Origin: Lachnospiraceae bacterium
GTDB taxonomy: Bacteria > Bacillota_A > Clostridia > Lachnospirales > Lachnospiraceae
NCBI GenBank assembly: GCA_024684065.1
Contig: JAIKXO010000078.1
Location: forward strand, 1 to 31,878
Reading direction: 5' to 3'
Length of the DNA: 31,878 nucleotides
Made by a program: the position numbers and the translations under genes. The notes under the pieces were generated by a model, which saw nothing but the letters and a program-made list of their open reading frames with translations, was not told the DNA's origin and made no database searches. This document shows positions 3,637 to 29,696 of the stretch, in pieces. Position 1 is the first letter of the stretch. Each line of letters opens with the position of its first letter.

Positions 3637-3720
3637 ATGCTTTCTATCAGTGACGAGATGGACGATGAGAGGGTGGAGACATCAGTAAATGAAATGCTAA
3701 GCAAAGGTCATCAGATTATT
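3637..3720 (+). pseudogene. Possible fragment of an SbcC/YhaN-type ATPase C-terminus
   Basis: Read from 3637 the translation contains ISDEMDDERVETSVNEMLSK and then GHQIIILATF. This looks like the Walker B/D-loop end of SMC- or YhaN-like ATPases (a DxxxxxDDERxE pattern, then a strand of the xxQIIIxT type). A strong AAGGAGG lies at 3614-3620, but the preceding coding sequence is absent and the frame runs into antisense of the LysR gene. It is only a relic if real; the match is a visual impression over about 30 residues. Confidence 0.25.
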
Positions 3721-8249: not shown

Positions 8250-8699
8250 AACCGATCTTTGCTTTTACATAAAGTTCATCCGGATAAAGAATGCGATGCA
8301 GTTATTTTCTCTGTTCCATGTTTTCAGGGGCATTTGCCCGGAATTATGAAAAACTTTACGGATCATATGGCATTTTTGTTACACCGGCCAAGATATTTTA
8401 CAAAGAAGGCACTTATAATCAGCACAACCGGAGGAGTGTCCGCAGAGAGTACGATAAAAGCCTTGGCAGCAACACTGCCGGGTTGGGGATTTAATAAATG
8501 TTATCAGCTTCCGGTAACTGCACTTAGTTGGAATGACTACAAGCCAACGAAAAAGGATCTGCGAGTGATGAATTTCTTTTATGTAGGAAAGAAGATTGTA
8601 GCGACAAACGGATTTGTAAAGAAAACGCAGAAAACTCCGGCTAAAGAACTTAAGCGGGCAAAAATAGACGCTCGCATCTCTTTCAATATAAACGGTTAA
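8250..8699 (+). pseudogene. 5'-truncated flavodoxin/NADPH-dependent FMN reductase
   Basis: The frame is open from 8250 and reads HPDKECDAVIFSVPCFQGHL, PGIMKNFTDHMAFLLHRP, KKALIISTTGGVSAESTIKA, then LPGWGFNKCYQLPV to TAA 8697-8699. These are the central and C-terminal parts of a flavodoxin-family reductase. The FMN phosphate-binding loop and the Cys motif seen in the intact relative at 6036-6578 are missing. The only start, a TTG at 8259, has no ribosome binding site. Upstream sequence is the cut end of the Fic gene. It is most simply a deletion remnant, though a short protein could still be made. Confidence 0.65.
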
Positions 8700-9850: not shown

Positions 9851-10160
9851 ATGACCATACATGAATTTGGAAAAGAAAACGAAAGAACGATAGTCCTTAT
9901 TCACCCCTCTCTGGTGATGTGGGATTACTTTGAATATGTGATCCCGCTTATGGAAAAGGACTATCATCTGGTGATACCTGCGATTCACGGATATGATCCG
10001 GATAAAAAGAATGATTTTACTTCAGTTGAGGAGATCACGGATCAAGTATATGAAGAAGTGTTTCCCCCAGACCAGATTCAAGCCGGTTAAGAATGCAGGC
10101 CACGGCGGCCTTGCGCCTTTTCAGCCTGAGAGGCTGGTGAGAGGGATAACAGGAAAGTGA
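9851..10160 (+). pseudogene. Alpha/beta hydrolase with internal deletion and frameshift
   Basis: ATG 9851 starts MTIHEFGKENERTIVLIHPS, then LVMWDYFEYVIPLMEKDYHL and VIPAIHGYDPDKKNDFTSVE: the N-terminal strands and HPS oxyanion loop of a hydrolase. The nucleophile-elbow region and cap are missing. From ATG 10050 in another frame comes MKKCFPQTRFKPVKNAGHGG and LAPFQPERLVRGITGK, the end of such an enzyme including the catalytic His (GHGG). A deletion of roughly 130 codons with a frame change joins the two ends. The original frame stops at TAA 10088-10090 and the second at TGA 10158-10160. Confidence 0.7.
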
Positions 10161-10232
10161 AATGATGAAAAAAGAGAGTAAAAGATGAAACTTAATAATT
10201 TCGTATGCGATGAAAGAAAGGAAAAGCAGATA

Positions 10233-11702
10233 ATGAAAAATTATGATATGAAGGAAAAGTTACAAGCCATAGAGAAGGTGATCGAAGCGGGACCGTATAA
10301 GGACACCTGGGAATCGCTGTCGGGATACAGGGTTCCGGACTGGTATGAGCGATTACGGTTTGGCATCTTTATCCATTACGGCCTGTTCACTGTTCCTGCT
10401 TTTGATTCGGAGTGGTATCCGCGCATGATGTATGTGAAGGGCAGCAGGGCATATACCCATCACCTGAGGACCTACGGGGAGCATGCCGGGTTTGGCCTGA
10501 AGGACTTTATTCCGATGTTTAAAGCTGAGCATTTTGATGCTGACAGATGGGTTGGTTTCTTTAAGAAGGCCGGAGCGCAATATGTTGTTCCGGTTGCCGA
10601 GCATCATGACGGTTTTCAGTTATACGAAAGTGAGCTGTCCTCTTATAATTCAAAGGATATGGGGCCGCGTAAGGATATCATTGGACAATTAAAGGAGAGT
10701 GTGGAAAGGGAAGGCCTTGTGTTTGGAACGTCTTCGCACAGGATCGAGCATTATTTCTTTCTGGGCGAGGGGAGAGATTTTGACAGTGATATACGGGGGG
10801 AATTTCGCAGGGGCGATCTGTACTGGCCTTCCATGAAAGGGCCTTCGGATCTTGACGCGGCAGACGGGGACTGTTCCCCTTCGGAAGAATTTATGCAGGA
10901 CTGGCTTGTCAGAACCTGTGAGATCATAGATAAATATGAACCGAGGATACTGTATTTTGACTGGTGGATAGAACGCGTGGAGCTTAAGCCGTATCTGAGG
11001 AAGCTGATCGCCTATTATTATAACAGGGCTCATGAGCAGGGCAGGCAGGTTGTCATAAATTATAAGCATGATGCGATTCCCTTCGGTATTGCAGTGCCGG
11101 ATGTGGAGAGAGGACAGCTTGCGGGACAGAAGCCTTACCGGTGGCAGAGCGATACGGCCATGTGCTTTAATTCCTGGTGTTATACGGTGGATAACAGGTA
11201 CAAACAGGCGCGTGATATACTGTGCGATCTGATCGATATCAACTCAAAGAACGGAACGATGCTTTTAAATATCGGCCCTAAAGAGGACGGAACCTTTACT
11301 GAGGAAGAGACGGAGATTCTGTCGGAAATCGGCGCGTGGCTTGATAAAAACAAAGAGGCAGTCTTTCAGTCTTCGCCCTACAGGATTTTCGGGGAAGGGC
11401 CTACCGAGGTGGCGGAGGGCGGCTTTAATGATCAGGAGGTCAAAGCATTTTCATCCGCGGATTTCCGTTTTTTTGCGGGACAGGGCTGCATCTATGCGGT
11501 TGCCCTGCGGACCGATCCGAACGGAGTCTATAAAGTCACAAGCTTTGCAAAAAAGCAGGGAAAACTGAATACGGGGATAGAAAAGATCATCTGTCTGCAG
11601 GACGGCTCCGAACTTTCCTTTGATCACAACGAAGACGGTCTTTTTATCAGATGCGGTATAAAAGGAGATATGCCGGTGGCTTTTAAGATAATCCAGGTAT
11701 GA
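10233..11702 (+). CDS. GH29 alpha-L-fucosidase
   Basis: A 489-residue glycoside hydrolase of family 29. Signatures are RFGIFIHYGLFTVPAF (about 42-57), EWYPRMMY, the GAQYVVPVAEHHDGFQLYES barrel segment (114-133), and PRILYFDWWIERVE, where Asp243 is the expected nucleophile. The catalytic domain ends near DINSKNGTMLLNIGPKEDGT, followed by a small beta-sandwich tail. No signal peptide, so it should act on imported fucosyl oligosaccharides. Start is uncertain: ATG 10233 has AAAGGA 9 bases upstream; an ATG at 10185 would add 16 residues (MKLNNFVCDERKEKQI) behind a weaker GAGAG. Family 29 retains the anomeric configuration and hydrolyses alpha-linked fucose. The gene is convergent with the metallophosphoesterase gene, with only 9 bp between stop codons. 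Confidence 0.88.
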   Translation: MKNYDMKEKLQAIEKVIEAGPYKDTWESLSGYRVPDWYERLRFGIFIHYGLFTVPAFDSEWYPRMMYVKGSRAYTHHLRTYGEHAGFGLKDFIPMFKAEHFDADRWVGFFKKAGAQYVVPVAEHHDGFQLYESELSSYNSKDMGPRKDIIGQLKESVEREGLVFGTSSHRIEHYFFLGEGRDFDSDIRGEFRRGDLYWPSMKGPSDLDAADGDCSPSEEFMQDWLVRTCEIIDKYEPRILYFDWWIERVELKPYLRKLIAYYYNRAHEQGRQVVINYKHDAIPFGIAVPDVERGQLAGQKPYRWQSDTAMCFNSWCYTVDNRYKQARDILCDLIDINSKNGTMLLNIGPKEDGTFTEEETEILSEIGAWLDKNKEAVFQSSPYRIFGEGPTEVAEGGFNDQEVKAFSSADFRFFAGQGCIYAVALRTDPNGVYKVTSFAKKQGKLNTGIEKIICLQDGSELSFDHNEDGLFIRCGIKGDMPVAFKIIQV

Positions 11703-11711
11703 AACGGTCCT

Positions 11712-12677
11712 TCAATCCGTGCCGGAAACCGTAATGATGCCAATATAGCCGCCAAACGCGGGGCCAAAAACATGTTCATGGACCTTTTGCGCGGCATAAC
11801 CGTCCCAGGGGTAATGAAGATGTCCGGCTACGATCTCCGTAAAGGGACTGTTCTTTTCGTAGATAAGGTCAAGCAGCTCGGACGTGCATTCATTCGGGGT
11901 ATACTCGTTGCTTCCGAAGCCCCAGAGCAGGGAGCGGTCGCCAAAGATTGCCCGCGAAGCCGAAGAGAGGCTTTTATCCTGTAAAGGTTCTATCGGAACG
12001 TGAGTGGCTAAGATCGCAGGCTTTCCCTTTTCCAGGGCTTTCTTTATCGTGTCTAGCCCCCCGGGGGTCAGCTGGTCCGTGGAATTGTTCCAGCCGATGA
12101 CCGAAAAGTCCGGAAATTCCTGCACAATGACATCATCAAATGCGCAGAGGTCCTTCTGGAGTGCTAAATACTGTTCACGTTCCTGATCCTTTAGATAATA
12201 CGGTTCCGTATCATGGTCGGCGCGGACATATAAAAACGGGATCTCCAGCCGGTCAAGGCCTTCCTTTAAAGCCGAATAATTCGCTTTGGAGGCAAAATCC
12301 GTCATGTCTCCGCAAAGGATCAGAAAATCCGCCCCGGAGGAATTCAACAGATCCACATAATCCGGCCATTGGTCAGTAGATGTGATCCCCTGATTTGAAA
12401 AAACAGACTCTCTGAACTTTACATCTTCCTTATTCTCATCCGCCACCTCATCATTTGCGCAGAGAATATGAAGATCGGAGAGATAGGCTATCACGGTCGT
12501 GTCCTGCATTCCGGGGATCTTTACCGAGACTTCTTCCACATTAAGAGGAAAGGGCGCTTCTGACAATATAGTATCCTGTGTATCGGTATCGGGAGGAGCC
12601 GGTTCGTCACAGGAGGAAAGATTCAGGCAAATAAGGGCAGATAACAGTATAAGGCAGGTTATTTTTTTGAATGTCAC
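11712..12677 (-). CDS. Calcineurin-like metallophosphoesterase lipoprotein
   Basis: A 321-residue exported lipoprotein. A signal peptide (MTFKKITCLILLSALICLNL) leads to the lipobox LSSC with Cys23. The metallophosphoesterase core follows: YLSDLH (Asp68, His70), CGDMTDF (Asp124, Asp127), RADHD at 152-156 in place of the usual GNHD/E, ATHVP (His226) and AGHLHYPW (His286, His288). The motif-III change swaps the metal-bridging Asn for Asp. The start is GTG 12677; GGAGG lies 14 bases upstream, rather far, and the nearer ATG is out of frame. It lies 55 bp after the GH67 gene on the same strand and is probably co-transcribed. Substrate unknown; it would act at the cell surface. Confidence 0.85.
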   Translation of the reverse strand: MTFKKITCLILLSALICLNLSSCDEPAPPDTDTQDTILSEAPFPLNVEEVSVKIPGMQDTTVIAYLSDLHILCANDEVADENKEDVKFRESVFSNQGITSTDQWPDYVDLLNSSGADFLILCGDMTDFASKANYSALKEGLDRLEIPFLYVRADHDTEPYYLKDQEREQYLALQKDLCAFDDVIVQEFPDFSVIGWNNSTDQLTPGGLDTIKKALEKGKPAILATHVPIEPLQDKSLSSASRAIFGDRSLLWGFGSNEYTPNECTSELLDLIYEKNSPFTEIVAGHLHYPWDGYAAQKVHEHVFGPAFGGYIGIITVSGTD

Positions 12678-12732
12678 AGTATGTTTGCATACCTCCGTTT
12701 TTTATATTGGGAAGGAGCCGGACCGGTGCGGT

Positions 12733-14757
12733 TCAGTAAAGCGTTCTTCCGTGATCATCCGCGATCAGGGTCCTTCTGTAGAAATATGAGTTGATCACGT
12801 CCCTCCACTGTCTTGCGTGCTCCTTCTGATGGGCAAGGCGTTCCGACACCCGGATAAAAGCCTCTTCATCCACAAGCCCCCTTAATTCCTTCCATAGAGA
12901 AGCCATCTCGTCCACATCTTCGACTCCTTCGAAATGGGTGTCATAGATATGCTGGATGATCGTTTTTCCGCAGGGGAGCACATAATCATAGGGGAGCCGG
13001 TGGAAGAAAAGGATAAGCTCTTTTGGTGTTGTCTTCGGATCCTCATAAACAGAGGCCAGGGGCTCGTTGTATAATGATGTGTAGCCTGTTCCGGTACTGT
13101 TTCTTTCAACGCCTATCTCCCTGCAGGTGGCCTTGTGATATGTCCCCCAGAGTGAATATTCATAGCCGTCAGGGTCGGGGCCGTAATGGGTATTGGGAGT
13201 GACCATCCAGCCGATTCCGAGGGGCGCCGTATACTTCTCATAAGCAGGCCAGGACATCATAAGGATCTTTTTTACATTTTCCAAAACCACGGGATAGGAG
13301 CCGTAGGTCAGCTTTATCCATTCGCCGGCGATCTCCTGTGCGCTAAGCTTCGGGCAGAAGGAGAGCCGCAGGAACCCGTAAAGGTTTGCGGCGGCAAGGT
13401 CGTGCCCCGTCCAGTTCTCATCGTTTCCGGTGTTTGAAACCGCGCACATTCCCTTCACTATATTCGCCACCCTTGAACCCCTGTCTTCAGGGCTTTTTCC
13501 ATATGTGTCAAAATCAAGGACCTCTTTAAACCAGGGGATCAGATAGCAGACATGCCTCTGCTGTCCGGTGTATTCCTGCGCGATCTGGAATTCGATCATC
13601 TCATCCGTCCGGGGCATGGCTCCGAAGAGAGGGGAGACAGGCTCCCTGACCTGGAAATCCATCGGTCCGTTTTTGACCTGGAGGATCACATTATCGTCAA
13701 ATTCCCCGTCAAGATCGTGAAAATAATCGTAGGCGGCTCTCGCCCTGTCTGTTTTCAGATCCCTCCAGTCCTGTTTACAGTTGTAGACAAAGCAGCGCCA
13801 CAGGATAAGGCCGTTATGGGGTTTAAGCGCACGCGCAAGCATATTTGCGCCCTCCGCCTGGGTTCTGCCGTAGGTGAAGGGACCTGGCCTTCCCTCGGAA
13901 TCCGCCTTGACAAGGAAACCGCCAAGACCCGGGGCTTTTTCATATATATTATTAAATTTTTCAGACCAGAAATCCTGTACGGCTTTTTCGGCCGGATCGG
14001 CACTGTTTACCGAAGGGTCTTCCATTGAGGCGGCATAATTGATGCTTAAATAAAGCCTGATCCCGAAGGATGAGAACAGCTCCGAAAGTTCATTCACCTT
14101 ATAAAGCCATTTGTCGTCTATGAGCCTTAAGGCCTCTCCCTTAACGTTCACATTGTTTATAACGATGCCGTTACAGCCGGCAGAGCAAAGGAGCCTTGCA
14201 TAGTCTTTCGTGCGTTCGTTTATGATAAGCCTGTTATCCTCAAAGAAGAATGAATTGCCGGAATACCCTCTTTCTATGGAACCGTCCATATTGTCCCAGT
14301 GGTTAAGGAGCCTGAGCCCGCAGAAAGGAATCTCCGTAATCACATTATTAACTGAGTCTGATATGCAATTTTTATGGTTCAAGCCTTTGTCCGATCCGGT
14401 CTCATCCGGGAATTCAGGTATTTTCCGGAGGCGGATCAGATTGATCAGGCGGAAGGCTCCGTAGATAAGCCCTGTCTCCGAAGCGGCTTCTATACGGAAA
14501 GCGTCATTTCCTGAAATGATGATACGGTAACCTTCAGTCGCCGGGTTAACCGTACAGCCCGGTTCGATTTGGTTCTGTTTTAGAGACAGATCGTAAAGGA
14601 GGCATAAAGAAACAGAAAACCCTGACAATGCCGGGCAGGATGAAAGTTCAGTGACGGCATTTTTTAAAACGGGGTGTTCCGGGGAGACTCCCGATACCGT
14701 GACAAAAGCGCCGGCACCCTCCTTAAGTTCGTAGTTTAACCAAAGTTTTGTATACAT
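12733..14757 (-). CDS. aguA: GH67 alpha-glucuronidase
   Basis: A 674-residue enzyme that removes 4-O-methyl-D-glucuronic acid from the non-reducing end of short xylo-oligosaccharides. The N-terminal domain (1-145) leads into a (beta/alpha)8 barrel starting CGLRLLNHWDNMDGSIERGY. Catalytic positions are visible: Glu288 in KADSEGRPGP (general acid), Asp367 in KNGPMDFQVREP and Glu395 in AQEYTGQ (the two base carboxylates). The C-terminal helical domain contains GWMVTPNTHYGPDPDGYEYS. Length matches the family. ATG 14757 is preferred because AGAAAGGAAG lies just upstream, overlapping an earlier in-frame ATG at 14775. No signal peptide, as usual for intracellular GH67. Paired AATCGTTTTG boxes upstream suggest control by a sugar-responsive regulator. 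Confidence 0.95.
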   Translation of the reverse strand: MYTKLWLNYELKEGAGAFVTVSGVSPEHPVLKNAVTELSSCPALSGFSVSLCLLYDLSLKQNQIEPGCTVNPATEGYRIIISGNDAFRIEAASETGLIYGAFRLINLIRLRKIPEFPDETGSDKGLNHKNCISDSVNNVITEIPFCGLRLLNHWDNMDGSIERGYSGNSFFFEDNRLIINERTKDYARLLCSAGCNGIVINNVNVKGEALRLIDDKWLYKVNELSELFSSFGIRLYLSINYAASMEDPSVNSADPAEKAVQDFWSEKFNNIYEKAPGLGGFLVKADSEGRPGPFTYGRTQAEGANMLARALKPHNGLILWRCFVYNCKQDWRDLKTDRARAAYDYFHDLDGEFDDNVILQVKNGPMDFQVREPVSPLFGAMPRTDEMIEFQIAQEYTGQQRHVCYLIPWFKEVLDFDTYGKSPEDRGSRVANIVKGMCAVSNTGNDENWTGHDLAAANLYGFLRLSFCPKLSAQEIAGEWIKLTYGSYPVVLENVKKILMMSWPAYEKYTAPLGIGWMVTPNTHYGPDPDGYEYSLWGTYHKATCREIGVERNSTGTGYTSLYNEPLASVYEDPKTTPKELILFFHRLPYDYVLPCGKTIIQHIYDTHFEGVEDVDEMASLWKELRGLVDEEAFIRVSERLAHQKEHARQWRDVINSYFYRRTLIADDHGRTLY

Positions 14758-15078: not shown

Positions 15079-17007
15079 ATGATGCAATATGGGTTATATG
15101 ATGAGAAAACAGGAAAGATAAGATCCTACAGTAAGGAAGAGGCGCGTACAAAGCTTGAGACCCGCTTAAATACGCCCGGGAGCAAAGAAGAAAAGCAGAA
15201 GGGGATGTCTGACTTCCTCACGGGAATACATTCTGCGGTGCGCTTTGAAAGTACCAGTCAGACTGCCAGAGACCGTACTTTTGGTGACAGATATAAGAAT
15301 GTTTTAAGCGAGGAAGAGCGGAAAAAACAGATGCAGAAGTCCGGCACCGAGCTCTGTCAGAAAAGGAAAAATGCCGAGGCTCTTGAGGCTGAAGAAAAGA
15401 AACGCTCCGACAAGCAGACCGTCAGAGCGAACGCCGCGTCGGAAAGGGCAAGGATCCGTCTGTCCGACCCGGACCTTAAGGCGATAAGCCGTTTCATGAA
15501 TGGAAACAGCAAAAAAGACGCTGCCCTGTTAACGCAGTACAAAAGCGGCGGAGCAAACAGGGCGACAGCCCTTAAAGAAATGATCAGGCGTTTTATGAAG
15601 ATAGACCCCGAGGGTATAGACATCACCAGCGAGAAAAACATAGCGGCAAATGCCGAAAAGCTTGAAAATTTAAGCGAAAAGCTATATGCCATTCAATATC
15701 TCATAACAATGTCCCCGCAGACTTACATGAGCCTGGATGAGGCCTTCAGAGACCGCTTTGAGATCCGGTATGGAAAAGCCAAGACAGTGGCTGCCTATTA
15801 CAGGCTTAAAAAGCATGTGATGAAAAATGAATACTACAGAACCCATCTGAACAAAGAGATCGGCAGGAAGCCGGAGGAAGGGGCTGATCCGGAGCAGAAG
15901 CTTCTTTCCGAGCTCATCTGGCAGGCGGAGGGCGGTCTTAAGCTTGTCCTTAAGAGGGCAGACAATTACATATACGATAAGACCACTGAGAATCTGATTC
16001 AGGCGCTCAGAACCGGGGATGCCAGGGCCAATATGCAGAAGCTTTCGGAAAAGCTGGAAAAAAGAAGGGAAAGGATCCGAAAGGAAGGGTTGAATTCCTA
16101 TCTCGACGAGACCGTGTTCGAGGAACGAGGCACAGGCGCCAAAGAAAAGCTGAATCTGGCAGACCATGCCAGAAACATTCAGGAACTCAAACTGACAGGG
16201 GATCCGGATAAGGATATGGACAGTCTCACGAAGATAATGGATCAGCTCGACACTCTGGAGGGAGCGGCCGCTTTCAGGGAAAAGAACCAGGATTTCTATT
16301 TACTTGAGCAGTCTGACCGGCAGATATTCTTATGTGAGATGGCTCTTGCGGCAAAGGGCCCTTTGAAGCGGATGCAGGAGGACCTGCTCTTTTTGGGAAG
16401 GCTTAGGACTGACGGTTCAATAGACACCACGGACCGTACGAAAGAAAATCTCAGCCGGTACAGGAAACGCTACGAGAATGATCTGAAGGATTACCGGGAT
16501 ATCATGGATATGTTCCGTATAACAAAGAACCAGAACTATGATCCGGCCGGCGAGAAGAATCCGCTTAAACAGGATTTATCTGAGATAGAAAGAACTCCCG
16601 AGCTTGAACGGAAGGCGAAAAAAATGCTCGTCGAACTCACAGAGGACGGCTTTTCCGACAAAGAGATCTATCGCAGGATCAACGAGATATATCTGTATTC
16701 TGTCAAGCTTGCAGGAACGGAGCAATCCAGGGTTCTTACGGTTTTAGCCAACAGGGCCAAGGCGCTCTGGAATGAAAAAAGATATCTGAATCTTATGGAG
16801 GTACAAAAGAAGGATCCAAACAGACATGATATTGACGAAGAGCTGAAATCGCTCGAGATGATCCATAAACTGAGATTCGGCTATTACGATGAAGAGAAGC
16901 AGAAGGATGAGCCCGGCAATGACTATACCTACGAGCCGATCTTAATGCTGAGGAATGAAGCAATGGAAAAAAAAGCTGGATTTCGAAGACCTGAAATCCC
17001 GCGCTGA
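15079..17007 (+). pseudogene. Giant calpain-like protease, segment 1 (N-terminal helical region)
   Basis: This frame gives 642 residues, but only about the first 632 belong to the original protein. It starts MMQYGLYDEKTGKIRSYSKE behind AGGA (15070-15073). It is highly charged (Lys/Glu/Arg-rich), predicted mostly helical with likely coiled-coil stretches, and has no signal peptide or membrane segment. I recognise no domain in it. At 16967-16974 an A8 run follows ATGG; read with one A fewer the frame passes straight into the segment at 16955-17800 (EKKLDFEDLKSRAEYYMF). Unshifted, it ends in the unrelated GFRRPEIPR and TGA 17005-17007. There are no other frame breaks, so decay is recent or the shift is used on purpose. 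Confidence 0.7.
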
Positions 17008-17800
17008 ATATTACATGTTCCAGTACGAATGGCTCTCGAGCGCCCATCCCGACTCTTATACGAGTAAAGTGGGAATTTTTGAGAAAGTGCTCATCGGAGG
17101 GGGGAAATTCTGGTATGGCAAGGACAAGACAAAGGACTATGGCAGGGGAAGCTATGAAAGGATCAGGCAGAATATGGAACGGTTCCCTGAAGAATTCAGA
17201 AAAATGGAAGATAACAAGCCGATTTTTCTGCAGAGGGGTGACGCGGATATTGCTCCGCCTGTTGAGATCACCAGATATTACAAAGACAGGGACAAGCTTT
17301 ATATAGCAGAACGATATAAGGTCCTGAAAAGCCTTCTGGGATTTGTAGAAGATAACGCGCCCTTTAAGGCAAACCTCGAGAAGCTGACGGAAGCGATCGG
17401 AATATACTCAGAAACCCAGTGCGCCGTTACGGATGACAGCCTGGAGATAGAGCTTGCGGCCATCGATATGTTCCGAAGCGAAGCCGATCAGTTCTTTATG
17501 AAAAAAGGAAGGATAGACCTGCGGGATCCTTATACCGGGATAATAGTCGACATCATGCAGACTATAGATTCCTTCGCCAGGGGAAGCTTAAGGAGCGAGA
17601 TGACCGATGCCGAATTTGCTGCGGCCTTAGAGCAGACGCCGGTGTATACAGAGCATTCCGAAAACGACCTTGAGGAAAGTAATGTAAAGGATCTTCCTTT
17701 GTTTACTCACCGGCCCAATATTAACGATACCAAGCAGGGCATGTGCGGAGACTGCCATTTTCTGGCATCCATTCAGGCAATGGTAGCCTCGGATCCGTAG
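16975..17800 (+). pseudogene. Giant calpain-like protease, segment 2 (ends after the catalytic Cys)
   Basis: This is the continuation of the large protein in the -1-equivalent frame after the A8 run. It encodes about 274 residues of linker (SRAEYYMFQYEWLSS, then LYIAERYKVLKSLLGFVEDN) followed by the start of a papain-fold C2/calpain protease domain: NDTKQGMCGDCHFLASIQAM. The nucleophile is the Cys of GDC at 17753-17755; most calpains have Trp after it, here it is His. Translation halts at an in-frame TAG, 17798-17800, in the middle of the first protease subdomain. The next codons continue the same fold. The only start near its 5' end, ATG 16955, has no convincing ribosome binding site. Confidence 0.7.
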
Positions 17801-17812
17801 GCAGTACAGAAA

Positions 17813-19132
17813 ATGTTCTACGATGTCGGAGATGGCACCGTTTTAGTCCGGCTTTATGCAGGCTATGACCAGTACGGCCGCAGGAACGATGATTTCAGGG
17901 AAATGAAAAAGAAGGAAACGACCTTAAAGCCTGCCTATGTGCGGGTCAGAAAGGACTACGAAAGGGATGGAAGCTACTCCCATGACTGTATCTGGGTACA
18001 GCTTCTGGAAAAGGCTATTGTCGCGGCAGGGCTGTTACATGGAGTTTCAAAGGTGGATGAAAAAGGAAAGATTGATAATTACCATTACGAGATCAGCTCA
18101 GGCTCCCCGGACAAAGACCTGTTTCATCTCATTGGAAATAAAAACGTAAAAGAGGTTGATACATATCACAGTAATGACTATCTTCTGCCTGAAAGGCAGC
18201 GAGACACGGAAAGGCAGCGCATGCTATTAAACGGCATGCCCCTTTATCTGCAGGAGTATATCTGGCCGTTGATCGATGTGAAATATGGCAGCGGAATTAA
18301 AGAGGATGATTCCCTGACCAGATTCCTTGAACTGACAGACTTTCATCTGAAGCTCAGGAGGAGTAACTATCTGGATAAGATAAACACATTTACTGAAGAG
18401 ATCAGGAATGGCGGGCTTTTTACCGAAGCCGACGCAAACGAGCTTAAAGAAAGGCTCTTAAAGATTTATGATTTCAATCCTGAAGAGCTCCTTGAAAAGA
18501 TGAAGGATAATATAGCAGGAGATTCAACGAAAAAGGACAGCGGCAATGACTATGAGGGGCTTGACGACCTGCTCGATGAAATAAAAAAAGGGCTTGAGCG
18601 GCATGACAGCAAAAATGATATCTTTGCCATGGTCGGAAAAAAGAAGCATTATTATGATGATCTTCCTAAACAGGAAGGGGAGGAAAACAGCAGCTATGAG
18701 GAAAGAAAGGAGAGGACCGATCAGACCACGCTTCGCTTCAATAAGGCCATGCTTATAACCAACCCGGATAATAGATACAACGTCCACCAGCTGGCCATGC
18801 TCTACGACATCAAAAAGTCTTTAAGAGCCGGAAAGGCTGTTGTCTGCAGCACGGACACACACGCACTTTCTATACATGATGTCAGACTCTATAACGACCG
18901 CTGGTTTATCCTTGTTAAGGATCCGCACAATATTAACAGCTTTGAATATACCAGAGGCATAAACGGCGAAATAATACGTGACGGGCATTTGCTGGACGGC
19001 ACGCAAAAGGTCAAGAATAACAAGCGTGTCCGTAATCTCGATGGCACCATGCTAAGCGCTGTCCTCGGAACCTCCTGGTGGGATCTTCACGATGCTTATT
19101 TAAAGCTCAAAAACTACGTACTCTATCCGTGA
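17813..19132 (+). pseudogene. Giant calpain-like protease, segment 3 (His/Asp half of the catalytic domain)
   Basis: After the TAG the same frame reads AVQKMFYDVGDGTVLVRLYA, which is the calpain strand following the catalytic Cys helix. Then come DCIWVQLLEKAIVAAG (the calpain WVxLLEKA motif), a charged insert of about 200 residues, and the second half of the active site: VVCSTDTHALSIHDV (catalytic His at 18860-18862) and FILVKDPHNINSF (an Asp-Pro where calpains have Asn-Pro-Trp-Gly). It ends WDLHDAYLKLKNYVLYP. ATG 17813 is merely the first Met after the stop, without a ribosome binding site. Alone it lacks the nucleophile and could not be an active protease. Confidence 0.72.
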
Positions 19133-19426: not shown

Positions 19427-21439
19427 ATGTACAATAAGAGGATAAGGCCGGATGAGAAGCCTGTTTTTCCCAAAAGAGCCATAATCACGGGAGGGATGCC
19501 TTATGGAAATAAGGAGCTCCATTTCGGGCACGTAGGAGGCATGTATGTTCATGCGGATGTTTTCGCCAGGTTTTTAAGGGACAGGATCGGAAAGGAAAAC
19601 GTGATATTCGTTTCGGGTACCGACTGTTACGGCTCTCCCGCGCTTGAAAGCTATCGGAAGCTTAAGGAAGACGGTTATGACAAGTCTATAGAGGAATACG
19701 TGAGGGGCAACCATGAGAAGCAGAAGGAGACCCTTGATAAATACAGGATCAGCCTTGATTTTTTCGGGGCCTCTGCCCTTGATGATTCCGCAGAGATGCA
19801 TAATGAAGTCTCAAGAGAAATATTTGAAGGCCTTTACGAGAAGGGCTATCTGGAAAAGCTCTCTACTCCGCAGTTTTATGATGATGAGTTCGGGGTATTT
19901 CTAAACGGCAGACAGGTTGAGGGAAGGTGTCCCATTGAGGGCTGCCAGTCCGAAAAAGCTTATGCTGATGAATGTTCCCTGGGGCATCAGTTCATGCCGA
20001 GCGAGCTTATAGATCCCGTAAGCGTTCTCTCGGGAACGAAGCCGTCGTTTAAGAATGTTACGAACTGGTATTACAGGCTCGAGGATGATATTGATTTCCT
20101 GAAGGAATACTTTGAAGAGCTTAAAAAGAATACCAATACGAGAAAGTTTGCGCTGACAGTTATCGAGGATTTCCTGAATAAGCCTTTTATCCATATCCCG
20201 AAAAAATTCCTTGAAGGAAAGGACTGGGAGGCGATCAGAAAGAAGCTTCCGGAACACGAGCTTTTGGACGAGGAAAAGAGGAAGTCCATAATGTGTACCT
20301 TCAGGTCCCTTGATGACAGGGATGAGGCAAGAAGGGTTTTAGAGCAGGAAAAAGTGCATTATACGGCCGGGAAGACTCTGGTGCCGTTCAGGCTTACCGG
20401 AAACGTTGAATGGGGTGTGCCGGTGCCGGACGTTGAGGACACAAAGGACTTAACCTTCTGGGTCTGGCCGGAATCCCTGTGGGCGCCTATCTCCTTCACA
20501 CGGACTTATTTTAAGAGAAAAGGCCTTCCGGATGATGAGTGGAAGAAGTGGTGGAATGATGACGAGGCGCAGGTATACCAGTTTATCGGCGAGGATAATA
20601 TTTATTTCTATTCCATAGCCCAGACCGGGATGTTCAACGCCCTTGGGAACCTTCACCAGAGCAACGTTATAGCCAACAGACATATATTGTTCATGGACAC
20701 AAAGGCAAGCTCGAGCTCGGCAATAAAGCCGCCGATGGCAGAGGAGCTTCTGTCTCATTATTCTGCAGACCAGCTCAGGATGCATTTCATCAGTCTCGGG
20801 CTTAACAACAAGAGCACCGGCTTCAAGCCTCAGGTCTACATGCCCGAAGATGAGAGGAAGGGTGCGGACATGGTGGTAAAGGAGGGAAACCTTCTTACCA
20901 ATGTCTACAACAGACTGATCCGCTCATGCTTCTATACGGTTCAGAAGGAGTTTGGAGGAAAGATTCCGGAGGGAGAGGTTTCCGAAAAGGTAAAGGAATT
21001 TGCCGAAAAGAAAGCCGGAGAGTACGAACGCTTCATGTACAACCAGGAATTCCACAGGATATCCTATGTCCTTGACGAGTACATAAGGGAGACCAATAAG
21101 ATCTGGGCGGCCACAAGCAGGGAGGCGGATAAAAACAACGATAAAGAGCTCTGGAAACAGCTTCTGATAGACACTTTCTATTCCTGCAAAGTGATGGCTG
21201 TGCTCCTTCATCCTCTTGCCCCGGACGGCTGTGAGATGTTCCGGGAGTATATGAACATTGATGAAAGACTGTTTTCCTGGGATTATATTTTAGAGCCTTT
21301 AAGCGCATATATTCCGGATCTGTCAAAGCACGAGCTGAAATTTTTAGAGCCCAGGGTGGATTTCTTCAAAAAACCTGAGTGGCAATACTCTGAGTCTGAT
21401 TTATCAGACTCAGAGGGACCGAAAAGTTCTGCATTATAG
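19427..21439 (+). CDS. Methionyl-tRNA synthetase-like class I tRNA ligase (divergent)
   Basis: A 670-residue class I aminoacyl-tRNA synthetase of the MetRS type. The first ATP motif is HFGH (His32-His35, in NKELHFGHVGG). A zinc-knuckle-like CPIEGC...C...GH segment lies near residue 170. The catalytic core continues with NVEWGVPVPDVE, TFWVWPESLWAP and YQFIGEDNIYFYSI. The second ATP motif is unusual: TKASSSSAIKPP (Lys426) stands where KMSKS is expected. The anticodon-binding helical domain follows (GNLLTNVYNRL). There is no C-terminal EMAP tRNA-binding domain. The last 17 residues (from YSESDLSDSEG) and the TAG stop are encoded by the 100-bp repeat. A strong AGGAGGG precedes the ATG. It may be a second, specialised MetRS rather than the housekeeping copy. 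Confidence 0.85.
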   Translation: MYNKRIRPDEKPVFPKRAIITGGMPYGNKELHFGHVGGMYVHADVFARFLRDRIGKENVIFVSGTDCYGSPALESYRKLKEDGYDKSIEEYVRGNHEKQKETLDKYRISLDFFGASALDDSAEMHNEVSREIFEGLYEKGYLEKLSTPQFYDDEFGVFLNGRQVEGRCPIEGCQSEKAYADECSLGHQFMPSELIDPVSVLSGTKPSFKNVTNWYYRLEDDIDFLKEYFEELKKNTNTRKFALTVIEDFLNKPFIHIPKKFLEGKDWEAIRKKLPEHELLDEEKRKSIMCTFRSLDDRDEARRVLEQEKVHYTAGKTLVPFRLTGNVEWGVPVPDVEDTKDLTFWVWPESLWAPISFTRTYFKRKGLPDDEWKKWWNDDEAQVYQFIGEDNIYFYSIAQTGMFNALGNLHQSNVIANRHILFMDTKASSSSAIKPPMAEELLSHYSADQLRMHFISLGLNNKSTGFKPQVYMPEDERKGADMVVKEGNLLTNVYNRLIRSCFYTVQKEFGGKIPEGEVSEKVKEFAEKKAGEYERFMYNQEFHRISYVLDEYIRETNKIWAATSREADKNNDKELWKQLLIDTFYSCKVMAVLLHPLAPDGCEMFREYMNIDERLFSWDYILEPLSAYIPDLSKHELKFLEPRVDFFKKPEWQYSESDLSDSEGPKSSAL

Positions 21440-27030: not shown

Positions 27031-27204
27031 TCTCAAATGAGCTGTCGCGCTTAACGGCAGGCCCTTGCCCACAACTGTTCAGTGTAAACCGTGACATCTG
27101 AAAGAAAATGATCCGGCCTGAAAAGCGGACGGAACGGTTCAGATTATAGTTTGAACCAAAGCGCACGATCTGCTGTGCATATCGGCGCAGATAATAGTTT
27201 GATC

Positions 27205-29196
27205 ATGTTATATAAAATAATGAACGGGACAGTAGAGCTGTCCGGAAATATCATACTTAACAGAATAAATTTCGAGATCAAGAACAAAAATGAGAAGCTC
27301 GCGGTGATCGGGAGGAACGGGAGCGGGAAGACTACGCTTCTTAAGCTTATCTCGGGAGAATATTCCCTGACACATGAGGACGGGGTGAATTCACAGATCG
27401 CAATGACCGGGAACCCTTCCATCGGGCATCTTAAACAGCTTTCCTTTGAGAATGACGACAGGACCCTTGATGAAGAGATAAGGACGGTCTTTTCAAGGGT
27501 GATCGATATGAAGAAGCGTCTTTCAGAGCTTGTTAAAAAGATGGAAGAGGACCCTTCAGAGAGGCTTTCCGCGGAATATACAAGGCTTGAAGAGGAATTT
27601 AACGACATAGGCGGCTACTACTATGAAAAGGAGTATGACGCAATGCTAAGGAGCTTCGGATTCTCTTTGGAGGATAAAAATAAGAAGCTTTCCGAGTTTT
27701 CCGGAGGGCAGAGGACAAAGCTTGCCTTTATAAGGCTTCTTTTGTCAAAGCCCGATATCCTTCTTCTTGACGAACCTACGAACCATCTTGACATTGACGC
27801 GATCGAGTGGCTGGAGAGTTATCTGAAAAACTATAAGCGCTCCGTGGTTATCGTGTCCCATGACAGGATGTTTCTGGATAAGATCGTTTCCGGGGTCTAT
27901 GAGATAGAGAACCACCGGCTTAAAAGGTATAACGGTAACTATACGGACTATGCCAGGCAGAAGAAGGAGGATTACGAAAGACAGCTGAAGGAATATAATG
28001 CGCAGGCTAAGGAGATAGACAGGCTCAACTCAATAGCCGAGAGGTTTATGGGGAAGCCTACGAAGGTCAGCATGGCCAGATCGAAGCTAAAGGCCATTGA
28101 GCATATGGAAAAGATCGATGCCCCTGAGAAACCTGACGAACGCTCTTTTCATGCGGATTATACCCCAAGGGTGATCCCGGGAAAGGATATCCTTTTTGTA
28201 AAGGAGCTGTCGATAGGGTATGACAGGGTGCTCTCAACCGTTTCCTTCGAGGTAAAGCGCGGAGACAGGCTTGGGATCATAGGAGCGAACGGCCTCGGAA
28301 AATCCACCCTGATAAAGACGATCGTCGGGGCGGTGAAGCCGATCTCGGGAAGCTTCCGCTACGGAACGAACGTCGAGACCGGGTATTTTGACCAGCAGAT
28401 GGCGCAGTATACCTCGGACAAGACAGTGATAGACGATTTCTGGGATGAATACCCTTCTTTAAACGAGACCGAGGTGAGAAACGCTCTCGGAGGCTTTCTC
28501 TTTACAAAGGACGATGTTTTCAAGGAAGTATCCATGCTTTCGGGTGGAGAGAAGGTCAGGCTGTCGCTTTGCAAGCTGTTTATGAAGAGACCTAACCTCT
28601 TAGTGCTTGATGAGCCGACAAACCACATGGATATAGCGGGAAAAGAGACGCTGGAGGAGCTGATAAACGGCTTTGAAGGCACGGTGATCTATGTCTCACA
28701 CGACAGGTACTTCATGAAAAAGACTGCAACAAGGCTTCTGTCAATAGAAGAGGATGCCGTCAGGCTTTACCCCTTCGGATATGAACAGTATGCAGAGGAG
28801 CAGGAAAGGCTTAAGGAAAGCGCGCAGGGACGGGGAGAGACGGACAGGAGCGGAATAGCTCTTTCGGGCAGCGTCATTTCGGTTGACATAAATCAGATCA
28901 ACGATAAAAACTATGATAAGAACAGCGGAAGAAAAGCGGAAAATCCTCAGGACGAGGTTAACATAAAAAAAGGGATGCTGTCATATCAGGCGGGAAAAGA
29001 GGCATCCAAGGCGGAGAAGAAGCAGAAAAAGCTGGAGGAAAGGATAGAACGGCTTGAGGAAGCTTTAAACAGGAAAAAGAGCGAGCTTGAGAATCCGGAA
29101 TACGCAAGCGACTATGTGAAGCTCTCGGAAATACAGAAGGAAGCGGATGCGCTGGAGGAGGAGCTTCTTTCGGCAATGGAGGAGTATATGAAATGA
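27205..29196 (+). CDS. ABC-F family ribosome-associated ATPase
   Basis: A 663-residue soluble protein with two ABC domains and no membrane segments, the ABC-F arrangement acting on ribosomes. Domain 1 has Walker A GRNGSGKTT (36-44), signature FSGGQRTKLA and Walker B ILLLDEPTNHLD. The linker (about 245-310) contains the family helical pair, ending KPTKVSMARSKLKAIEHMEK. Domain 2 has GANGLGKST, LSGGEKVRLS and LLVLDEPTNHMD. The C-terminal tail is a coiled coil (KKLEERIERLEEALNRKKSE). ATG 27205 fits the usual start (MLYKIMNGTVELSGN), but its ribosome site is weak; an in-frame TTG at 27151 is possible. It overlaps the GreA-like gene by 4 bp. It may be a housekeeping translation factor or an antibiotic-protection protein. 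Confidence 0.9.
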   Translation: MLYKIMNGTVELSGNIILNRINFEIKNKNEKLAVIGRNGSGKTTLLKLISGEYSLTHEDGVNSQIAMTGNPSIGHLKQLSFENDDRTLDEEIRTVFSRVIDMKKRLSELVKKMEEDPSERLSAEYTRLEEEFNDIGGYYYEKEYDAMLRSFGFSLEDKNKKLSEFSGGQRTKLAFIRLLLSKPDILLLDEPTNHLDIDAIEWLESYLKNYKRSVVIVSHDRMFLDKIVSGVYEIENHRLKRYNGNYTDYARQKKEDYERQLKEYNAQAKEIDRLNSIAERFMGKPTKVSMARSKLKAIEHMEKIDAPEKPDERSFHADYTPRVIPGKDILFVKELSIGYDRVLSTVSFEVKRGDRLGIIGANGLGKSTLIKTIVGAVKPISGSFRYGTNVETGYFDQQMAQYTSDKTVIDDFWDEYPSLNETEVRNALGGFLFTKDDVFKEVSMLSGGEKVRLSLCKLFMKRPNLLVLDEPTNHMDIAGKETLEELINGFEGTVIYVSHDRYFMKKTATRLLSIEEDAVRLYPFGYEQYAEEQERLKESAQGRGETDRSGIALSGSVISVDINQINDKNYDKNSGRKAENPQDEVNIKKGMLSYQAGKEASKAEKKQKKLEERIERLEEALNRKKSELENPEYASDYVKLSEIQKEADALEEELLSAMEEYMK

Positions 29197-29696
29197 GGGA
29201 CAGACTGACAAGATCCGACATAAAAAAAATGGAGGATGAGATAGAATACAGGACGGTAACGCTTCGGGAAAAGCTTATCGAGGATGTAAAGGAAGCCAGA
29301 GCCCACGGGGATCTTTCCGAAAATTTCGAATATCATGCGGCTAAGCGTGAGAAGAATAAGAATGAAAGCCGCATAAGGTATCTTGAAAAGATGGTAAAGA
29401 CCGCGCACATCATTGATGACAGCTCAAAAGAAGACGAGGTCGGGATAAACAATACGATAACGATTTTATTCGAGGATGACGGCACGATCGAGAAATACAA
29501 GCTTGTTACGACAGTGAGGACTGATTCGTTAAACGGCCTTATCAGTATAGAATCTCCGTTAGGGAAGGCTATTCTCGGGAAAAAGCTCGGGGAAAGGGCG
29601 GAGGTTAAGGTGAATGATACCGTGTCATATTTTGTCGTAATCAAGGAGATCGATAATTCGACCGATGATTCCGAAGATAAGATCAACGAATATTAG
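29193..29696 (+). CDS. GreA/GreB family transcription elongation factor
   Basis: A 167-residue Gre factor. Residues 1-75 are the antiparallel coiled coil with the tip ARAHGDLSENFEYHAAKREK, which holds the acidic residues that enter the RNA polymerase secondary channel and trigger cleavage of backtracked RNA. The C-terminal FKBP-like globular domain spans about 85-155 (GINNTITILFEDDG, then SPLGKAILGKKLGERAEV). An acidic tail follows. ATG overlaps the ABC-F stop (ATGA), so the two are translationally coupled. The sequence is more divergent than housekeeping GreA, so it could be a paralogue. Pairing a ribosome factor and an RNA polymerase rescue factor in one operon suggests a shared role in resolving stalled expression (inference). 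Confidence 0.88.
   Translation: MRDRLTRSDIKKMEDEIEYRTVTLREKLIEDVKEARAHGDLSENFEYHAAKREKNKNESRIRYLEKMVKTAHIIDDSSKEDEVGINNTITILFEDDGTIEKYKLVTTVRTDSLNGLISIESPLGKAILGKKLGERAEVKVNDTVSYFVVIKEIDNSTDDSEDKINEY

What the first reader, a model, noticed from the sequence alone, without database searches (positions are those of the whole stretch)
15079..19132. A 1350-codon calpain-like protease split into three open segments
Segments 1, 2 and 3 fuse into one protein if one base is removed at 16967-16974 and the TAG at 17798 is read through. Outside these two points about 4 kb stay fully open with conserved motifs on both sides. The long charged N-terminal part has no recognisable domain and no signal peptide, so the whole protein looks like an undescribed intracellular or specially exported protease. 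Either decay is very recent or expression is gated by recoding.
Basis: partly seen in the sequence, partly recalled or inferred. Interest (0 to 1): 0.8.

Follow-up and report, generated by a model that had tools for sequence, protein, structure and literature searches.

The report
Freshly broken calpain-like protease gene
A bacterium carries a recently broken copy of a very large calpain-like enzyme gene whose relatives elsewhere are whole; the break itself looks ordinary, but the protein belongs to a little-known family of giant proteins that share a building block and often sit beside a small acetyltransferase-like gene.

Summary
15079-19132 (+) is one ancestral reading unit of about 1350 codons, cut by a frame change at an A8 run (16967-16974) and a TAG at 17798-17800. 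Uninterrupted proteins of 1333-1376 aa exist in other sources, and 8 of 13 genome loci found are full-length single frames. The segments are not normally separate genes.

Recoding is unlikely: it would need two unrelated events, and neither site is conserved. The A-run is missing in 4 of 4 loci where the site was located (4 more not located), and there is no stop in 8 of 8. TAG ends 4 of 23 other genes here. Constraint has not visibly relaxed, so the breaks are young, or partly assembly errors; no reads are held. UBA3814 holds two more copies gutted by deletions.

The N-terminal part is not domainless. A helical module of about 240 aa in it recurs in 21 fetched frames without the calpain core; 17 of 21 sit beside a GNAT-like gene. 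That family is the more novel lead.

The parts
15079..17007 (+). Segment 1, 642 aa: N-terminal shared helical module plus middle part; ends out of frame just after the A8 run
   Evidence: ORF list and translation; 54% identity to P0006/P0008
15256..15960 (+). Shared helical module (residues 60-294 of segment 1), found also in 21 fetched non-calpain frames of 783-3483 aa
   Evidence: Profile match E 5e-96; the window's own stretch is one of the 12 rows of that profile; alignments A4, A5; calpain core absent from the 21
16967..16974 (+). A8 run at which the reading frame changes
   Evidence: Homopolymer scan; frame plot
16952..17800 (+). Segment 2 with its TAG stop: pre-protease part and the start of the calpain-like core, including the predicted catalytic Cys
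   Evidence: Translation; Pfam C2 14 bits at residues 249-277, below cut-off; 61-63% identity to P0006/P0008
17735..17755 (+). Predicted oxyanion Gln (17735) and nucleophile Cys (17753) in the motif QGMCGDC
   Evidence: Coordinates; conserved in relatives, except Cys to Ala in P0009
17798..17800 (+). In-frame TAG, the 15th codon after the predicted catalytic Cys codon
   Evidence: Stop scan; relatives have GAG, GAA, GAC, AAG or CAG there, 8 of 8 loci
17801..19132 (+). Segment 3 (443 codons to the TGA): rest of the calpain-like core with its helical insertion
   Evidence: Translation; 49-51% identity to P0006/P0008
18860..18931 (+). Predicted catalytic His (18860-18862) and Asp at calpain's Asn position (18920-18922) in KDPHN
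   Evidence: Coordinates; alignments A2, A3; the match to calpain's positions is by motif, no residue-level structural alignment was seen

Best explanation
The locus is a recently inactivated gene. Its ancestor encoded one intracellular-type protein of about 1350 aa: a shared helical module, a helical middle part, and a C-terminal calpain-fold cysteine-protease-like core whose two lobes are separated by a helical insertion. In this contig the ribosome should stop at 17007, so the main product would be a 642-aa fragment without the protease core. The predicted Cys and the His/Asp lie on different segments, so no active enzyme is expected. Shown: both breaks; intact relatives; non-conservation of both sites in the relatives read; the predicted calpain fold of a relative; sharing of the module. 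Inferred: loss of function, recency, and proteolysis by the intact relatives. For intact relatives the most likely mode is that the helical module tethers or delivers the protein and the calpain-like core cleaves a target; this is inference from architecture only.
For: Uninterrupted homologues: P0006-P0008 are 1354-1360 aa, 53-56% identical over 98-100% of the 725-residue query. 8 of 13 loci carry a single frame covering the family profile from position 1-3 to 1322-1348. Breaks not conserved (stop 0 of 8 loci; A-run 0 of 4 located, 4 not located). TAG is an ordinary stop here, ending 4 of 23 genes. UBA3814, with 77% PtsI identity, holds two remnants with internal deletions, so loss recurs in this group. 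The gene is absent upstream of the syntenic MetRS-like gene in both genomes examined. Another relic lies in the same contig at 8259-8699. Random mutation would reach two disabling changes with a mean of only about 1-3 changes at the 254 invariant sites, for assumed indel shares of 0.05-0.2, too few to see.
Against: No sign of relaxed constraint. The window pieces violate 13 of 254 invariant sites, against 23 of 264 (P0006) and 19 of 260 (P0008) in intact relatives; neither difference is significant. This fits very recent decay but also sequencing error or a product still under selection. The UBA3814 deletions come from a single metagenome-assembled genome.
Confidence: 0.76

Rival explanations
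1. One or both breaks are sequencing or assembly errors and the gene is intact in the organism.
For: No relaxed constraint in any segment; homopolymer runs are a common error site (recalled); the database cluster of segment 3 has one member on one contig.
Against: Of the 23 genes used, 22 are open and match a Pfam family, several only in part; the exception is the relic at 8259-8699. GreA keeps its frame through an A8 run at 29222. The TAG is not a homopolymer error.
Confidence: 0.14
2. Expression is gated by recoding: transcript slippage or frameshifting at the A-run plus stop readthrough gives a little full-length protein.
For: An A-run sits exactly at the frame change and constraint persists on both sides. 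Slippage rescuing interrupted genes is described (PMC1088944, abstract and passages seen).
Against: Two independent events are needed. The A-run is not conserved (longest A-run 2-5 in 4 of 4 loci where the site was located; 4 of 8 loci not located) and no stop occurs in 8 of 8 loci. Eight A is below the nine-nucleotide length given in PMC1088944 for a large share of genomes. TAG is an ordinary stop here.
Confidence: 0.05
3. The A-run is a contingency (phase-variable) site that switches the gene between strains, and the TAG is a later or strain-specific lesion.
For: Homopolymer at the frame change. Another family member (L003) has an A17 run inside its frame.
Against: The run is not at this place in the 4 relatives read, and the TAG would keep the gene off whatever the run length.
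Confidence: 0.05

Closest known systems
Calpain family C2 cysteine proteases (protease core, e.g. human calpain-3, PDB 6bdt)
   Different: Asp instead of the catalytic Asn in every family protein where the motif pattern was found (P0020 not found); a helical insertion between the lobes; P0006, P0008 and P0009 stay below the Pfam cut-off; the window copy is split.
Bacterial calpains as surveyed by Rawlings 2015 (PMC4631099; abstract and passages seen)
   Same: Rare and patchy occurrence, varied architectures, non-peptidase members.
   Different: A word search of its main text gave no Lachnospir-, Butyrivibrio or Clostridi- (its supplements were not searched). The paper says a bacterium has one homologue; here the core belongs to a wider shared-module family.
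Toxin-activating acyltransferase plus giant protein pairs (HlyC type; recalled, papers seen only as a listing)
   Same: Small GNAT-like gene beside a giant protein gene.
   Different: No RTX repeats or exporter was looked for; the GNAT-like genes here are about 280 aa and Pfam GNAT covers only about the first 120 residues; the relation is only an analogy.

Membership tests
Peptidase family C2 (calpain) | Calpain protease-core fold | tested here: met
Peptidase family C2 (calpain) | Catalytic Cys, His, Asn triad (as defined in PMC4631099) | tested here: not met
   Cys and His present in the window; Asp at the Asn position by sequence motif and alignment. Hence 'calpain-like', not 'a calpain'
Peptidase family C2 (calpain) | Gln before the Cys (oxyanion) | tested here: met
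   QGMCGDC at 17735-17755
Peptidase family C2 (calpain) | Proteolytic activity | not testable with these tools
   No assay; Cys lost in P0009, His lost in P0005
Programmed frameshift or transcript slippage | Slippery run conserved in homologues | tested here: not met
   Longest A-run at the site 2-5 in 4 of 4 loci where it was located; 4 further loci not located by the pattern
Stop-codon readthrough | Stop conserved in homologues | tested here: not met
   Sense codon in 8 of 8 loci
Pseudogene | Disabling lesions absent from homologues | tested here: met
   no orthologue at the same place was found
Pseudogene | Relaxed constraint | tested here: inconclusive
   13 of 254 invariant sites changed, no excess over intact relatives; too few changes expected to detect
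Shared-module giant proteins | Helical module of about 240 aa | tested here: met
   Window segment 1, E 5e-96; the window row was part of the profile, but the sharing was first seen with the calpain-type profile A2, built without the window, against other frames
Shared-module giant proteins | Adjacent GNAT-like gene | tested here: not met
   None in the window; beside 2 of 11 calpain-type loci, L007 and L010, several of the 11 being cut close to one end

The most novel reading that the evidence does not exclude
The window gene is a broken member of an undescribed two-gene system of Lachnospiraceae and their kin: a giant protein with a shared helical module and interchangeable enzymatic parts (here a calpain-like core), made together with a GNAT-like acyl- or acetyltransferase that modifies, activates or restrains it, in conflicts between microbes or with mobile elements.
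Probability: 0.35. Interest if true: 0.75.

Novelty: new variant of a known kind. Interest (0 to 1): 0.4.

Why it matters
It makes ordinary loss, not a new recoding mechanism, the likely reading of the split frame. It also shows that an apparently domainless N-terminus marks a family of giant proteins with a recurrent small partner gene, with nine matches in one genome (two of them, C5 and C35, have the same score and length and may be one gene assembled twice), that Pfam, NCBIfam, PADLOC and PHROGs did not name for the members I scanned. If the pair is functional, it would be a new way of arming or regulating large enzymes in rumen and gut bacteria.

Full report
WHAT IS THERE. The plus strand from 15079 to 19132 holds three long open stretches. 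Segment 1 (15079-17007) is in one frame; segments 2 and 3 share another frame and are separated only by a TAG at 17798-17800. The frame change falls on a run of eight A at 16967-16974. A codon score trained on the neighbouring genes favours these frames, with a switch near 17000, and the three segments score 0.398, 0.378 and 0.404 against 0.21-0.53 for the 22 other non-relic genes. This is not chance.

ONE PROTEIN, NOT THREE. A search with the segment 2+3 frame, stops as X, found 20 proteins, among them P0006, P0007 and P0008 (1354-1360 aa, 53-56% identical over 98-100% of the 725-residue query) and P0010-P0016 (1333-1376 aa, 30-36%) (only the 7995 candidates sharing most words were scored). 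Aligned apart, all three window segments match the same relatives: segment 1 54%, segment 2 61-63%, segment 3 49-51% identity to P0006 and P0008. A scan of species genomes gave 13 loci. Of these, 8 carry one frame covering the family profile from position 1-3 to 1322-1348, 2 are open but cut by contig ends, and 3 are remnants. One of the 8 (L004) has a different last part.

DECAY OR RECODING. At the first junction, relatives have A-runs of 2-5 in the 4 loci where my pattern located the site; 4 further loci were not located. At the second junction 8 of 8 loci have GAG, GAA, GAC, AAG or CAG. So neither site is conserved in the relatives that could be read. TAG is an ordinary stop in this contig, ending 4 of 23 genes. 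A run of nine is the length at which a large share of bacterial genomes avoid A or T runs, and slippage can rescue some disrupted genes (PMC1088944, abstract and passages seen). Here the run is eight and a second event would be needed. Recoding is possible but unlikely.

HOW OLD. At sites invariant in the comparison set, the window changed 13 of 254, P0006 23 of 264 and P0008 19 of 260; the differences are not significant. The window is thus not evolving faster, although segment 3 taken alone shows slightly more window-only changes (11 against 6 for P0006, 9 against 6 for P0008; 7 against 13 for P0009). About 4% of random single-base changes in these segments make a stop, so two disabling changes would be reached with a mean of about 1-3 changes at invariant sites (a simple calculation with assumed indel shares). 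The data cannot tell recent decay from sequencing error. Against error: of the 23 genes used, 22 are open and match a Pfam family, several only in part, and one carries an A8 run in frame (GreA, 29222). The exception is a relic at 8259-8699, where an FMN-reductase fragment runs into a Gp49-like fragment.

LOSS RECURS. Of six genomes tested, the nearest by PtsI are UBA3814 (G001, 77%) and G003 (71%). Both keep the MetRS-like and PtsI order and several of the following genes, but in the frames listed no calpain-like gene lies upstream of the MetRS-like gene. UBA3814 has two remnants elsewhere: pieces matching about residues 1-81 next to about 1176-1315, and pieces 106-163 and 246-286 next to about 1235-1345, 71-76% identical at DNA level to the window. 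G003 has an intact gene at another place. The calpain-type family is rare: in a set of 145 relatives of G001, with G001 itself counted, 4 had any match to the whole profile, and in one of these (G080) the matches lie in the N-terminal module only.

THE N-TERMINAL MODULE. A profile of the calpain-type family also matched other large frames in the same genomes. The shared part is about 240 aa, predicted mostly helical (mean pLDDT 78.3 for a 380-residue piece), with no confident fold match and no Pfam family above its cut-off in the window's own segment. In the loci I fetched it occurs in 21 frames of 783-3483 aa (L084 is cut by its contig end, one L078 frame by the fetched stretch), sometimes near the start and sometimes around residue 1100. 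Profiles of the two calpain-core lobes match the 8 calpain-type frames and none of these 21. Genomes with the module: 4 of 295 in the set around G003 and 6 of 295 in the set around G080, each including the centre genome and overlapping each other; G301 has nine matches, two of them probably the same gene. A same-strand GNAT-like gene lies within 100 nt of 17 of the 21 frames. Six of these were used to build the GNAT profile; of the 15 others 11 have it, against 11 of 53 other frames of at least 250 aa in the same loci (Fisher p 0.0003). The control is weak in one way, because the 15 frames come from few genomes and two of them share one GNAT-like gene, and conservative in another, because frames on the far side of the same GNAT count as hits. 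Among calpain-type loci, 2 of 11 (L007, L010) have such a neighbour, several of the 11 being cut close to one end; the window has none.

HOW IT MOST LIKELY WORKS. Intact members probably use the module for tethering, partner binding or delivery and the C-terminal part as the acting enzyme; the GNAT-like partner may modify or restrain the giant protein. All of this is inference from architecture and adjacency. No secretion system was looked for and no activity is known. In this contig the expected product is the 642-aa N-terminal fragment.

NOVELTY. Searches for 'calpain-like' with Lachnospiraceae gave no paper. Butyrivibrio with calpain gave 20 papers, of which the eight listed concern diet, meat or medicine by title. 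A general bacterial calpain search listed two relevant surveys (passages seen). The library holds open-licence papers only. The broken gene itself is ordinary; the architecture is a new variant; the module-GNAT association is the part that deserves follow-up.

Noticed in passing
   Followed up: partly
L007:4503-10416: A calpain-type gene is followed after 3 nt by a GNAT-like gene (E 2e-35) and preceded closely by a weaker GNAT-like match (E 2e-5, gap 63 nt).
   Followed up: partly
window 8259-8699: Relic frame joining a truncated FMN-reductase-like part to a Gp49-like fragment.
   Followed up: no
L003, gene 9908-13906, gene position 3683: An A17 run inside the intact frame of a calpain-type gene, shortly before the predicted catalytic His.
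   Followed up: no
window 19427-21439: MetRS-like protein of 670 aa far below the NCBIfam cut-off (256 against 587 bits) yet 85-88% identical in two related genomes and next to PtsI in both.
   Followed up: no
L011:8658-9278 and L012:2527-3193: Two remnants of the calpain-type gene in UBA3814 with different large internal deletions.
   Followed up: partly
window 27151-29196: ABC-F protein whose best NCBIfam row is OptrA but far below that model's cut-off (647 against 1450 bits); of the 25 rows shown only the general ribosomal-protection-like model is passed.
   Followed up: no
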